Positions 29,144-55,444 of a stretch of DNA of 64,000 nucleotides are shown here, piece after piece. The stretch comes from Desulfobulbus sp. Lineage in GTDB: Bacteria > Desulfobacterota > Desulfobulbia > Desulfobulbales > Desulfobulbaceae. How positions within the stretch are numbered: the first letter of the stretch is position 1; each line of letters starts with the position of its first letter. The translations under genes and the position numbers were made by a program. Under the pieces are notes generated by a model, which was not told the DNA's origin, did not search any database, and saw only the letters and a list, made by a program, of their open reading frames with translations. The DNA is taken from assembly GCA_028684915.1 (NCBI GenBank), contig JAQUEZ010000008.1, positions 1-64,000 on the forward strand, in the 5' to 3' direction.

Positions 29144-29183
29144 TGGCCCAATGACCCGGTAGCTGCGATAAGTGCCAACTTTT
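29144..29183 (+). repeat. Transposon left terminal inverted repeat (40 bp)
   Basis: Begins GGCCCAATGACCCGG and ends GTGCCAACTTTTT. Every base is matched by the inverted copy at 55405-55444; length is close to the 38 bp usual for Tn3-family elements, although the first bases are GGCCC rather than GGGG. Confidence 0.93.
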
Positions 29184-29248
29184 TTTTCATAATACGATTC
29201 GATTTTTGGTATCCTATCTAATCTTCCTATGTTAGAGAGGGCCATGTT

Positions 29249-32176
29249 ATGAAAAAAATTTGGGATACCGAGGAGTTATCTACCATTTGGAGTTTGAACT
29301 ATGATGAGTTGAAGCTGCTTAAAACGAAGCCATTAAGAAATCATCTTGGCTTTATATCGCAACTCAAATTCTATCGATTCAGTGGACGATTTCTTCAAAA
29401 TAGCTCGGAAATTTCTGAAGCACCTCTTCAACACCTTGCAGAACAGCTAAATGTACCCGTTTCCGATATTCATTCTTATGATTTTGCCAGTCGATCTGGT
29501 AAACGTCATCGGTCAGAAATTCTTGCCTTTCTCCAGGTCCAGCGAGTCACAGCAAAAGATAAGCACAATTTTTCTGCCTGGCTTATCAGAGAGATATTCC
29601 CTCAAGGTGCTGACATTGGGGAAGCGATCGAACTTTCATTTAATTGGTTTGCCCAAAAAAGAATCGAAAGCCCAGCAAGGGCTGAGCTTGATCGCCTATC
29701 CCGCTCTGCGTTCACCCAATTTGAGCAAAATCTTTTTGCGGAGATTAACCAGTCGCTTTCGATAGCAGACAAGGAAAAGTTGAATCTGTGTCTTAATGGA
29801 TCTGACGGGATAGTAGAATTTAGCAGCTTGAAGGCTGATCCTGGTCGTATTGGTTTGGAAAGTGTTCTCATAGAAACCGAGAAATTACAATTTATTCGGC
29901 CATTTAACCTAAACCATGAAATATACCAAAGAATCAGTGGGAAGGCTCTAAAAAGGTATTTTCAGCGTGTCTGTAGTGAAAGTACCTGGAGGGTCAAGCA
30001 ACATCCGCCTGAAATCAGATATGCCCTGCTTGGAATATTCCTCTATTACCGACAACGGGAAATCATAGATGGCCTGATCGAACTCTTCATCCAAATCGTT
30101 CACCGGCTCACAGCTAAAGCTGAACGGAAACTGATTAAGGAGTTGCTGAACGATTTTCGGAAAGTTCATGGAAAAACCACCCTGCTGTTTAAAATTGCTG
30201 AGGCAGTACTTCTAAATCCAGAGGGTCAGGTGAAGGATGTCGTCTATCCTATTGCCGGAGAAAATGTTCTACAGAACCTACTCAAAGAATTTAAATCTTC
30301 TGGACCAGGGTACAAGCAGCAGGTTCATAAAATCATTCGTTCCTCTTACGGCAACCATTATCGACGCATGGTTCCAAAAATCCTTGAGGCACTTAATTTC
30401 CGTTCAGGTAATACACAGCATCGGCCCGTGTTAGAAGCTCTGGAATGGATTCAACAGAATCGGGACCAATCCAATCATTTTATCCCGCTAGACCAAGGGA
30501 TTCCGATTGATGGTGTCATTCGAAATAACCAGCGAGAAGTAGTCATTGAAGAGGATAGTCAAGGTAGGGAGAGAATCAATCGGATAAATTATGAGATCTG
30601 TGTTCTCCAGGCCTTGCGTGACAAACTCCGCTGTAAAGAAATTTGGGTGGAGGGTGCTGACAAGTTTCGAAATCCCGATGATGATTTACCTATCGACTTC
30701 GAAGATAAGCGCGAAGATTATTACCTCGATCTAGGTCATTCAATTGACAGCTCAGAATTTATCAATGGCATCCAGGACAGAATGCGATTAGCTCTTACAG
30801 ATCTTGATCAAGGCATGCCAAAGAATCAGAAGGTTCGGTTACTCAATCGAGGGAAGAGAAAAATATCCATCACTCCTTTTGAGGCTCAGGAAGAACCGCA
30901 AATCCTTACCGCCTTAAAACGGGAAATCGCTAGTCGGTGGCCTATGACCAGCTTGCTCGATGTTCTCAAGGAGGCCGATTTGCGAGTGGGTTTTACCGAC
31001 CATTTTAAAACGGTCGGTGAGCGGGAAATTCTGGATAGACAAAATCTGCAAAGACGGTTGCTACTTTGTCTTTATGGGATGGGAACCAATACCGGCTTGA
31101 AAAGGATCAGTGGTAACCGCCATGGGATCAGCTATAAAGAACTAATGCATGTCAGGCGGCGTTACGTCCATAAAGCCGCGCTGCGTAACGCCATAGGGCA
31201 AGTTGCCAATTCCATTTTCAGCATTCGTAATACTGATGTATGGGGGGAAGGATCGACCTCATGTGCTTCTGATTCAAAGAAATTCGGTTCCTGGGATCAG
31301 AACCTTATGACAGAATGGCATATCCGTTATGGTGGTCGCGGAGTCATGATCTATTGGCATGTTGAGAAGAAATCAACCTGCATCTATTCCCAGTTAAAAC
31401 GCTGCTCTTCCTCAGAAGTCGCCGCCATGATCGAAGGTGTCTTGCGGCATTGTACAGATATGACAATTGATCGGCAGTATGTTGATAGCCATGGACAAAG
31501 CGAAGTGGCTTTTGCTTTTTGTCATTTGCTCGGTTTTGATCTTTTGCCGAGGCTGAAGGCCATTACTTCTCAGAAACTCTACCGTCCCGATGACAATAAT
31601 GCGGGGACGTATTCGAACCTGGAAGCAATTATGACCCGCCCAATTAATTGGGAACTGATTAGGCAGCAATACGATGAAATGATCAAATACGCCACCGCTC
31701 TGAAACAAGGAACCGCCAATCCAGAGTCCATTCTGCGGCGTTTTACCCGTAATAATATTCAGCATCCAACTTACCGGGCGCTGTCTGAGCTTGGCAAGGC
31801 GGTTAAGACGATATTTTTGTGTCGTTTTCTAGGATCTGAAGCGTTGAGACAGGAAATTAACGAAGGATTAAATGTCGTGGAAAATTGGAATAGCGCCAAT
31901 TCCTTTATCTTCTTTGGAAAAGGCGGCGAAGTCGCCACTAATCGTTTGGAAGATCAGGAACTATCAGTTCTCGCTTTGCACCTGCTGCAAATCTGCTTGG
32001 TTTATGTCAATACGCTGATGATACAGCAAATCTTGATGCGGCCAGATTGGCGCTCAAGGATGAAGCAGGAGGACTACCGGGCCTTGTCACCATTGATTTA
32101 TAACCATATCAATCCGTATGGCATCTTTGAACTTGATATGGATCAACGGTTGCCGATTGAATATGCAGTAGTGTAA
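29249..32176 (+). CDS. tnpA: Tn3-family transposase TnpA
   Basis: 975-residue DDE transposase of the Tn3 family, about the usual 950-1000 residues. The N-terminal DUF4158-like DNA-binding region starts IWDTEELSTIWSLNYDELKLL. In the C-terminal catalytic half, ASDSKKFGSWDQN and DRQYVDSHGQSEVAFAF hold the two catalytic Asp positions, and NRLEDQELSVLALHL is the region of the Glu. LYGMGTNTGLKRI is also characteristic. The ATG at 29249 has GAGAGGG upstream. The gene is uninterrupted, so the element may still move. It reads inward from the left terminus. Confidence 0.95.
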   Translation: MKKIWDTEELSTIWSLNYDELKLLKTKPLRNHLGFISQLKFYRFSGRFLQNSSEISEAPLQHLAEQLNVPVSDIHSYDFASRSGKRHRSEILAFLQVQRVTAKDKHNFSAWLIREIFPQGADIGEAIELSFNWFAQKRIESPARAELDRLSRSAFTQFEQNLFAEINQSLSIADKEKLNLCLNGSDGIVEFSSLKADPGRIGLESVLIETEKLQFIRPFNLNHEIYQRISGKALKRYFQRVCSESTWRVKQHPPEIRYALLGIFLYYRQREIIDGLIELFIQIVHRLTAKAERKLIKELLNDFRKVHGKTTLLFKIAEAVLLNPEGQVKDVVYPIAGENVLQNLLKEFKSSGPGYKQQVHKIIRSSYGNHYRRMVPKILEALNFRSGNTQHRPVLEALEWIQQNRDQSNHFIPLDQGIPIDGVIRNNQREVVIEEDSQGRERINRINYEICVLQALRDKLRCKEIWVEGADKFRNPDDDLPIDFEDKREDYYLDLGHSIDSSEFINGIQDRMRLALTDLDQGMPKNQKVRLLNRGKRKISITPFEAQEEPQILTALKREIASRWPMTSLLDVLKEADLRVGFTDHFKTVGEREILDRQNLQRRLLLCLYGMGTNTGLKRISGNRHGISYKELMHVRRRYVHKAALRNAIGQVANSIFSIRNTDVWGEGSTSCASDSKKFGSWDQNLMTEWHIRYGGRGVMIYWHVEKKSTCIYSQLKRCSSSEVAAMIEGVLRHCTDMTIDRQYVDSHGQSEVAFAFCHLLGFDLLPRLKAITSQKLYRPDDNNAGTYSNLEAIMTRPINWELIRQQYDEMIKYATALKQGTANPESILRRFTRNNIQHPTYRALSELGKAVKTIFLCRFLGSEALRQEINEGLNVVENWNSANSFIFFGKGGEVATNRLEDQELSVLALHLLQICLVYVNTLMIQQILMRPDWRSRMKQEDYRALSPLIYNHINPYGIFELDMDQRLPIEYAVV

Positions 32177-32366
32177 TTGGGGGCGCTTCAGGATTCGGAA
32201 AAAATAGTACATATGTATGGAAAGTAAACATAACAAGTATAGATTGTTATCAAATACAACCGCTTTAAATTTTAAGCAACAAAATAAGTAACAAATTGAA
32301 TTTCCAAAAATAATTTTGCACTCACATTGCTATATTTTCCTTTTTCTGAAGCAATCCCATTCTGTT

Positions 32367-54590: not shown

Positions 54591-54614
54591 AGCCAAAAGT
54601 GAGCCTCTGACCAT

Positions 54615-54884
54615 TTAAGAATGCGAGCCGTTACATATAAAAGTTACATGCGCCCATAATGCTCTGGCATAATAAGGATTATCATAATGCTTCTCTATGT
54701 CAGACGGTTCAGGAGCACTCTTCCCCTCTTCAGCCAAAATCTCCAAATGGTCAGAAATGGCCTCTTGGGCATTACTTAAAGCCTCGGCGATGGTTTCACC
54801 GGCTGAAAAACAGCCGGGTATATCAGGGACCGATACGCCAAAACAAGAGCCCTGATCTTTGTGGATTGCGACGGGATATTTCAT
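54615..54884 (-). CDS. HicB-family antitoxin, C-terminally truncated, orphan
   Basis: 89-residue HicB-like protein: YPVAIHKDQGSCFGVSVPDIPGCFSAGETIAEALSNAQEAI is the partial RNase H fold. Family members normally continue for 40 or more residues into a DNA-binding domain after the WA.V position; here the sequence departs after ALWAHV and ends, so the 3' end looks cut off next to tnpR. No HicA toxin gene is visible upstream. Probably a remnant. Confidence 0.65.
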   Translation of the reverse strand: MKYPVAIHKDQGSCFGVSVPDIPGCFSAGETIAEALSNAQEAISDHLEILAEEGKSAPEPSDIEKHYDNPYYARALWAHVTFICNGSHS

Positions 54885-55404
54885 TTTTCGGATCTTCCCT
54901 CCAAAATACGGTTTGAACTGCGGAGCTATCCTTTAATCCCTATCTATCTTTCCTAGCACACTAAAAGTGGCAAAAGTCCACGGAATCTTTCTTTGAATGA
55001 ACCAAGAAAAATGAAATTGGAACAATTCATTGAAAATAAAGCATATTTTAATTGCCATTGAGAGCCTTTACGACATTTTGCTAACGGGAAAAGTGGCAAA
55101 AGTCCCATCGGCCTATGAACAAGATTCGATCTGCTCCCAAGCTTATTTATACACGGCCCCCATTAAATTGGAATGACCTGATCATATGTTTTCCTGCGAA
55201 TTCCCTTAGCGTGCTTTTGCTATCGGGTCATGAGGCCAATTCACGCTCGCGGCCTTCGTTTCCACCACCTTCTCCAATACAATCTTCCATCTTCAGGGGT
55301 GAAGCGGCCCCGCATCATGAACGTTCGTTAAACGCTAACAAATTTTGGCGGTTTTTCTCACGGCCCCTACCGTTGGGATTATTTAAAGCTAAACGACTCA
55401 AGAT
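54885..55404. other. Non-coding right-end segment of the transposon
   Basis: No convincing gene. It contains two copies of AAAAGTGGCAAAAGTCC (54963-54979 and 55089-55105), 126 bp apart. The remainder, GC-richer around 55230-55320, may be debris of an older insertion. Confidence 0.5.
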
Positions 55405-55444
55405 AAAAAGTTGGCACTTATCGCAGCTACCGGGTCATTGGGCC
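55405..55444 (-). repeat. Transposon right terminal inverted repeat (40 bp)
   Basis: Exact reverse complement of 29144-29183. Its outermost bases supply the last codons and stop of the gene at 55435-56031. Confidence 0.93.

What the first reader, a model, noticed from the sequence alone, without database searches (positions are those of the whole stretch)
29144..55444. Complete 26.3-kb Tn3-family transposon with perfect ends and target duplication
Seen: 40-bp perfect inverted repeats at 29144-29183 and 55405-55444, a 5-bp direct repeat TCTTT directly outside both, a full-length Tn3-type transposase reading in from the left end, and a serine resolvase with a res-like site at the right end. Known: Tn3-family elements have terminal repeats of about 38 bp and make 5-bp duplications. 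Inference: the whole interval moved in as one unit fairly recently. Its size is large and its cargo is metabolic rather than resistance or mercury genes.
Basis: partly seen in the sequence, partly recalled or inferred. Interest (0 to 1): 0.95.

Follow-up and report, generated by a model that had tools for sequence, protein, structure and literature searches.

The report
Transposon carrying nitrite-to-ammonium gene set
A complete 26,300-base jumping DNA element with perfect matching ends sits in the DNA of what is likely a Desulfobulbus-type sulfate-reducing bacterium; it carries three hybrid-cluster-protein genes, a nitric-oxide-reductase-type gene and an eight-haem cytochrome pair that are together predicted to turn toxic nitrite and its by-products into ammonium, a protection that would then be able to move between bacteria.

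Summary
The element spans 29145-55444 (26,300 bp): perfect 40-bp inverted repeats, TCTTT target duplication, intact Tn3-family transposase, res site and serine resolvase. A related Desulfobulbus genome has the flanking genes joined without it.

The new part is the cargo: three hybrid cluster proteins, a NorV-type flavodiiron protein, an HPP membrane protein, a NapH-like ferredoxin, and a tetrahaem NapC/NrfH plus octahaem HAO-family pair. The domain set matches the 'reverse-HURM' nitrite-hydroxylamine-ammonium route proposed for Nautilia, with NO defence added. The only two exact HcpR-type operator cores in the 64-kb window lie in front of hcp1 and hcp3.

A 7.5-kb cargo block is 99.5% identical in another, clearly different genome, and the identity ends at the centre of res site I. 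Two further contigs of that genome match from that same point in the other direction. This fits cargo exchange at res, already published for toxin-antitoxin modules.

Enzyme direction, HcpR binding and transposition are inferred, not shown. It is a new cargo variant of a known transposon family, of moderate interest.

The parts
29140..29144 (.). target duplication, left copy (TCTTT)
29145..29184 (+). left terminal inverted repeat, 40 bp
29249..32176 (+). tnpA, Tn3-family transposase, 975 aa
32367..33557 (-). flavodiiron protein, NorV type (best solved match: E. coli-type anaerobic NO reductase flavorubredoxin 6etb, 2.6e-165)
33616..34152 (-). HPP-family membrane protein, possible nitrite transporter (inferred)
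   Evidence: family role
34149..34775 (-). CBS-domain protein
34862..36496 (-). hcp1, hybrid cluster protein
36598..36611 (.). exact HcpR-type operator core TTGAC-N4-GTCAA upstream of hcp1
   Evidence: consensus
36634..36999 (-). cupin protein
37220..37819 (-). TetR-family regulator
37891..38898 (-). NapH-like membrane ferredoxin
38937..39647 (-). glutamine amidotransferase-like protein
39813..43537 (+). TetR regulator, membrane-fusion protein, FtsX/MacB-like permease and ABC ATPase (export system)
43703..45331 (+). hcp2, hybrid cluster protein
45757..46266 (+). PAS-domain protein
46401..46913 (+). tetrahaem NapC/NrfH-family cytochrome, 4 CxxCH
46924..48234 (+). octahaem HAO-family cytochrome, 8 CxxCH, no CxxCK
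48658..51617 (-). trio: ABC-type ATPase, CobW/HypB-like GTPase, DUF1858 plus solute-binding protein; role unknown
51699..51790 (.). two HcpR-type operator cores (51699-51712 with one mismatch, 51777-51790 exact) between the trio and hcp3
51956..53686 (+). hcp3, hybrid cluster protein (best solved match 1e2u, 7.5e-264)
53862..53887 (.). res site I, perfect 26-bp palindrome; breakpoint shared with three contigs of G241
53947..53997 (.). accessory res motifs (sites II and III, by resemblance)
53997..54590 (+). tnpR, serine resolvase
54615..54884 (-). HicB-like antitoxin-type gene; no partner identified
55405..55444 (-). right terminal inverted repeat, 40 bp
55445..55449 (.). target duplication, right copy (TCTTT)
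55435..56031 (-). host gene hit near its 3' end; its last codons are now read from the right repeat

Best explanation
This is a complete 26.3-kb Tn3-family transposon that inserted with a 5-bp target duplication into the last codons of a host gene, and its cargo is predicted to reduce nitrite, hydroxylamine and nitric oxide and would be switched on, at least in part, by the host's own NO-responsive regulator HcpR. Shown by sequence: the ends, the duplication, transposase, res and resolvase, the joined flanks in a relative, the domain content, and the operator sequences. Inferred: (1) TnpA moves the element by replicative transposition and TnpR resolves the cointegrate at res. (2) The membrane-anchored NapC/NrfH protein takes electrons from quinol and feeds the octahaem protein, which reduces nitrite to hydroxylamine (or on to ammonium); the HPP protein may carry nitrite across the membrane. 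(3) The three cytoplasmic Hcp proteins reduce hydroxylamine to ammonium and/or NO to N2O, and the flavodiiron protein reduces NO. (4) HcpR of the host acts at the operators in front of hcp1 and between hcp3 and the ABC-CobW-DUF1858 trio. (5) Blocks of cargo to the left of res are swapped between related elements by crossover at res site I.
For: Ends, duplication and chance. Empty site: joined flanks restore ...GSFVKEEST at 199 aa; 10 of 10 relatives read are 199-200 aa and carry six or seven residues after FGSF, against five in the interrupted gene; G060 has host gene and rlmN 12 bp apart. Cargo domains. Octahaem protein: 8 CxxCH, profile best to 4qo5 at 211.7 bits. Reverse-HURM as proposed for Nautilia needs HaoA, a NapC-type cytochrome and Hcp (PMC3701875), and all three kinds are on the element. 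Operators: the only two exact cores in 64 kb are in hcp promoter regions, against 0.04 exact per shuffled window. Exchange at res: 99.5% identity over 7,523 bp ends in the palindrome.
Against: No activity is shown. Whether the octahaem protein lacks the tyrosine cross-link that marks oxidising HAO could not be read, since the alignments to HAO stop before that region. Hcp is regarded by others mainly as an NO reductase. No HcpR-type core at up to one mismatch precedes nrfH-hao, hcp2 or the flavodiiron gene, and at up to one mismatch three sites per window is ordinary (36 of 100 shuffles reach it). No HcpR gene lies on the element by domain search, and the host's genes cannot be searched. The TetR-ABC export system and several small genes do not belong to the proposed pathway. 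In 12 of 13 close octahaem loci no hcp lies in the fetched stretch, so the link of the two steps is specific to this element and G241. G241 has no detectable end (up to 3 mismatches) and no tnpA match, and high identity covers only the right part of the cargo.
Confidence: 0.62

Rival explanations
1. The cargo is only a nitrosative-stress shield: Hcp and the flavodiiron protein remove NO as N2O, and the octahaem protein removes traces of nitrite or NO or acts on another substrate; there is no nitrite-to-ammonium pathway of real flux.
For: Hcp acts as a high-affinity NO reductase in the view of PMC10949509 (Discussion part 1) and PMC5701242 (passages). The flavodiiron protein is of NorV type. 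Operators stand in front of hcp genes but not of nrfH-hao.
Against: A dedicated quinol-linked NapC/NrfH partner directly precedes the octahaem gene here and in 11 of 13 close loci, which suits respiratory flux better than trace removal.
Confidence: 0.28
2. The cargo is a chance collection of passenger genes with no joint function.
For: It includes an export system, a cupin, an amidotransferase and a HicB-like gene; modules of the cargo occur alone in other genomes; sister elements stand beside unrelated genes.
Against: Three hcp genes, an NO reductase-type protein, an HPP protein, a NapH-like protein and an HAO-type pair share one theme. Six of these genes keep their order in G234. Operators of one type mark two separate hcp promoter regions.
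Confidence: 0.1
3. The breakpoint at res site I in G241 comes from homologous recombination, another mobile element or misassembly, not from resolvase-mediated exchange.
For: G241 is fragmented into short contigs; a shared 15-base repeat lies about 110-130 bp (C39) and about 70 bp (C300) from two of the breakpoints; C300 ends inside tnpR.
Against: In three contigs ungapped identity to the window changes at the palindrome: C39 100% over the 60 bp left of its centre and 41% over the 100 bp right of it; C300 23% over 60 bp left and 90% over 100 bp right; C27 45% and 90%. The foreign half-sites still resemble res half-sites (10 of 13 and 11 of 13 positions). The same crossover point is published for exchange of toxin-antitoxin modules (PMC7157771, passages).
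Confidence: 0.25

Closest known systems
Tn3-family transposons with tnpA, res and serine tnpR (large catabolic members such as Tn4651 are recalled, not searched)
   Same: Transposase family, terminal repeats of about 38-40 bp, 5-bp duplication, res and serine resolvase.
   Different: Cargo for nitrogen-oxide reduction; five searches of the paper library did not turn up such a member (listings only for 30, 64, 81 and 102).
Reverse-HURM pathway of Nautilia profundicola (PMC3701875)
   Same: HAO-family octahaem protein, NapC/NrfH-family cytochrome and Hcp.
   Different: Carried on a transposon, in a likely sulfate reducer, with three Hcp and a flavodiiron protein and without nitrate reductase genes on the element.
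HcpR regulon of delta-proteobacteria (PMC1274295)
   Same: TTGAC-N4-GTCAA cores upstream of hcp genes.
   Different: Here the operators travel with the transposon, while no CRP/FNR-type regulator was found on it.
Intertransposon exchange at res site I (PMC7157771, Fig. 6 legend in passages)
   Same: Identity ends at the central dinucleotide of site I.
   Different: The exchanged block is a 7.5-kb metabolic unit instead of a toxin-antitoxin pair.
Sister elements in Desulfobulbales genomes (G067, G002, G241)
   Same: Ends within 2-3 mismatches (G067, G002), or tnpR at 96-99% (G241).
   Different: Other neighbouring genes: an iron-type ABC transporter in G067, a Fic protein in G002, an aconitase before res in G241.

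Membership tests
Tn3-family transposon | Tn3-type DDE transposase, full length | tested here: met
Tn3-family transposon | terminal inverted repeats of about 38 bp | tested here: met
   40 bp perfect; similar ends beside related transposases
Tn3-family transposon | 5-bp target duplication | tested here: met
   TCTTT on both sides; empty site
Tn3-family transposon | res site and resolvase | tested here: met
   by sequence only
Tn3-family transposon | replicative transposition in the cell | not testable with these tools
   needs an experiment
Reverse-HURM pathway | HAO-family octahaem protein | tested here: met
   8 CxxCH; Pfam Multi-haem_cyto 3e-31; HAO-family solved structures
Reverse-HURM pathway | quinol-linked NapC/NrfH-type partner cytochrome | tested here: met
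   neighbouring in 11 of 13 close loci
Reverse-HURM pathway | hydroxylamine reductase (Hcp) | tested here: met
   three genes above the NCBIfam cut-off; short motifs around the cluster ligands present in 3 of 3 (their role recalled)
Reverse-HURM pathway | octahaem protein without the tyrosine cross-link of oxidising HAO | tested here: inconclusive
   alignments to HAO end at HAO residue 403, before that region
Reverse-HURM pathway | nitrite reduced to hydroxylamine and then ammonium | not testable with these tools
   needs an experiment
NrfHA ammonia-forming nitrite reductase | pentahaem NrfA, usually with a CxxCK active-site haem (recalled) | tested here: not met
   8 CxxCH, 0 CxxCK
HcpR regulon | TTGAC-N4-GTCAA operator upstream of hcp | tested here: met
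   hcp1 and hcp3 yes, hcp2 no
HcpR regulon | HcpR protein in the host, binding and induction by NO | not testable with these tools
   no genome held

The most novel reading that the evidence does not exclude
A plug-in nitrite-ammonification unit: one transposon delivers a whole two-step nitrite-hydroxylamine-ammonium route plus NO defence, wires itself to the recipient's HcpR through its own operators, and belongs to a family of elements that trade blocks of metabolic genes at res site I, so that nitrogen-oxide pathways are assembled and spread among sulfate reducers cassette by cassette.
Probability: 0.42. Interest if true: 0.72.

Novelty: new variant of a known kind. Interest (0 to 1): 0.56.

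Why it matters
Nitrite and NO are toxic to sulfate reducers, and whether nitrite becomes ammonium or gas decides if nitrogen stays in a sediment. A transposon with this capacity would make it a transferable trait. It would also extend exchange at res, published for toxin-antitoxin pairs, to a block of respiratory and detoxification genes, with exact junctions on which to test it.

Tried and rejected
Search of IMG/VR for the first 32 bases of the end: 0 hits. Copy number in the own genome: not possible. Distant DNA search of plasmids with the cytochrome pair: 1 record, a 99-bp match. CRP-like HcpR sites TGTGA-N6-TCACA: none in the window at up to one mismatch. Insertion hot spot: G059 has about 30 kb between the two flanking genes, but without similarity to the element. 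NrfA reading of the octahaem gene: not met. Integron reading of the short repeats in G241: considered by eye only. A toxin partner for HicB: ORFs of 35 aa or more were listed, none recognised by eye, no family search. A fold comparison of the octahaem model (mean pLDDT 69.2) gave HAO-type chains in ranks 1-9 but cannot tell oxidising from reducing members.

Limits and dropped rows: one search kept 80 of 304 relatives. Their fetched stretches are 4-40 kb long, so 'no hcp nearby' in 12 of 13 holds only there. G073 may lack nrfH only because its contig ends. G241's C39 copy is 99.5% identical to the window, so its operators are not independent evidence.
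Full report
The observation. The two 40-bp ends are identical and lie at 29145-29184 and 55405-55444, each with TCTTT directly outside. The element is 26,300 bp with G+C 47.2%, against 52.8% to its left and 51.2% to its right in the window. Chance is negligible. The transposase is full length. A serine resolvase is at the right end, its likely start being 53997 behind a Shine-Dalgarno-like AGGAGG.

The insertion site. The right end lies in the last codons of a minus-strand host gene (55435-56031), which now ends ...GSFVKEAQ with codons from the repeat. 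Joining the flanks with one TCTTT gives 199 aa ending ...GSFVKEEST. Ten relatives read, chosen from the best hits, have 199-200 residues with six or seven after FGSF (KEE in 4 of 10). In G060 an aminotransferase, a 300-aa gene, rlmN, the host gene and an FMN reductase follow each other as in the window but without the element; rlmN and the host gene are 12 bp apart. The two genes are neighbours in 4 of 5 relatives examined; the fifth, G059, has about 30 kb of other genes between them. Names of the best hits point to Desulfobulbus as the host, an inference from relatives.

A transposon family. Of 304 related transposases found in genome contigs 80 were kept; three Desulfobacterota metagenome bins have 78-81% (L001, L002, L004). 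L002 has the terminal repeat with 1 mismatch over 38 bp. A 70%-identical Photorhabdus copy has ends with 7 and 8 mismatches and a TATTA duplication on both sides. A search of 7 genomes for the 40-bp end with up to 3 mismatches found two places each in G067 and G002 and none in the other five, with none for the control. At G067:C30 and G002:C55 a resolvase gene touches the repeat, and the neighbouring genes are an iron-type ABC transporter and a Fic protein. Cargo between tnpA and tnpR therefore seems to vary within the family; the other ends of those copies were not found.

What the cargo likely does. In Nautilia profundicola nitrite is proposed to be reduced by HaoA with a NapC-type cytochrome to hydroxylamine, and by Hcp to ammonium (PMC3701875, abstract and Discussion); its authors do not exclude direct ammonium formation. 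A hypersaline-mat study discussed the same combination of hao and hcp (PMC8940962, passages). All three kinds of component are on this element. HPP proteins are linked to nitrite transport in work cited by PMC7438415 (passages), and an HPP gene is induced by NO in Desulfovibrio desulfuricans (PMC5701242, passages). Against a simple reading, Hcp is held by others to be mainly an NO reductase, so ammonification and NO defence may both apply.

Regulation. PMC1274295 (passages) predicts wyTTGACnnnnGTCAArw for HcpR in delta-proteobacteria other than Desulfovibrio, Desulfotalea among them. In the window this core occurs three times at up to one mismatch, at 36598, 51699 and 51777, all upstream of hcp1 or between the trio and hcp3; two are exact, against 0.04 exact per mononucleotide shuffle. 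The count at up to one mismatch is not above chance (36 of 100 shuffles reach it); position is the argument. Cores at up to one mismatch also stand upstream of hcp homologues in four of the five relatives listed (L118, L262, L189, L187; not L148), where L118 is nearly identical to the window; some other cores in those loci are not next to hcp. None precedes nrfH-hao, hcp2 or the flavodiiron gene.

Where the cargo came from. In 257 genomes of the order of a Desulfobulbaceae bin, 13 have an octahaem protein of at least 68% identity. The tetrahaem partner is adjacent in 11 of 13, but hcp lies in the fetched stretch in only 1 of 13, G241. G241 contig C39 carries window 46366-53887 at 99.5% over 7,523 bp, while the flanking host DNA has only a 429-bp match of 69% (and 37 bp of 89%) in that genome, so transfer between distinct species is likely. 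Identity stops in the palindrome 53862-53887: 100% over the 60 bp left of its centre, 41% over the 100 bp beyond it. C300 and C27 of the same genome show the reverse (23% left and 90% right; 45% left and 90% right), running into res and tnpR. On C27 the gene before res is the end of an aconitase; on C90 an hcp2 of 91% DNA identity is followed by the start of an aconitase; that these two belong together is inference. Exchange of toxin-antitoxin modules at the same point of res site I is published (PMC7157771, passages). I therefore read the cargo as assembled by exchange at res among related elements. Caveats: G241 is fragmented and may hold misbinned contigs, shows neither end nor tnpA, matches the rest of the cargo only weakly, and has a shared short repeat near two breakpoints.

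Modules elsewhere. HPP-CBS-hcp1-cupin-TetR-NapH keeps its order in G234, with another flavodiiron-type gene between. The trio stands divergent from an hcp3 homologue (92%) in G132; of four genomes with a close trio protein (at least 72%, of 28 of 257 with any match), hcp lies beside it in two. In G067, HPP-CBS-hcp1 follows a 48-residue remnant of a related transposase.

Verdict. It is a new kind of cargo on a known kind of transposon, with a concrete regulatory and exchange mechanism to test. Library searches pairing Tn3 with sulfate reducers, with hybrid cluster protein, and with Desulfobulb- and cargo found 0, 1 and 0 papers (the one seen as a listing only, a resistance-plasmid study). Most subscription journals are missing from that library, so novelty in print is not proven.

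Noticed in passing
window 28816-28945: A dispersed repeat of about 110-130 bp, 200 bp left of the element, has dozens of copies in G060 and G059 but no second full copy in the window.
   Followed up: partly
window 27934-28707: A Thi4-family gene lies between rlmN and the element; it is absent at that place in G060.
   Followed up: no
window 48658-51617; L262 7232-10195; L263 8945-11914: A conserved trio of ABC ATPase, CobW-like GTPase and DUF1858/binding protein of unknown role, divergent from hcp3 here and in G132, without hcp nearby in G061.
   Followed up: partly
L148 3126-3562 and L182 2-1180: In G241 an aconitase gene follows a mobile hcp2 on one contig and precedes the res-tnpR module on another; aconitase is an NO-sensitive enzyme (recalled), so a spare copy would fit the theme.
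   Followed up: partly
L262 2066-3412: The hcp3-trio locus of G132 lies near a TraD/TraG-type conjugation gene, another possibly mobile setting.
   Followed up: no
L001 173-3854: A possible minimal sister element of about 3.7 kb: transposase plus resolvase between diverged ends (10 and 5 mismatches over 38 bp), without matching 5-bp flanks.
   Followed up: partly
L082 10793-12790: A NapC plus octahaem pair lies on a Desulfobaculum bizertense plasmid (octahaem 40% identical), another mobile setting for this pair.
   Followed up: no
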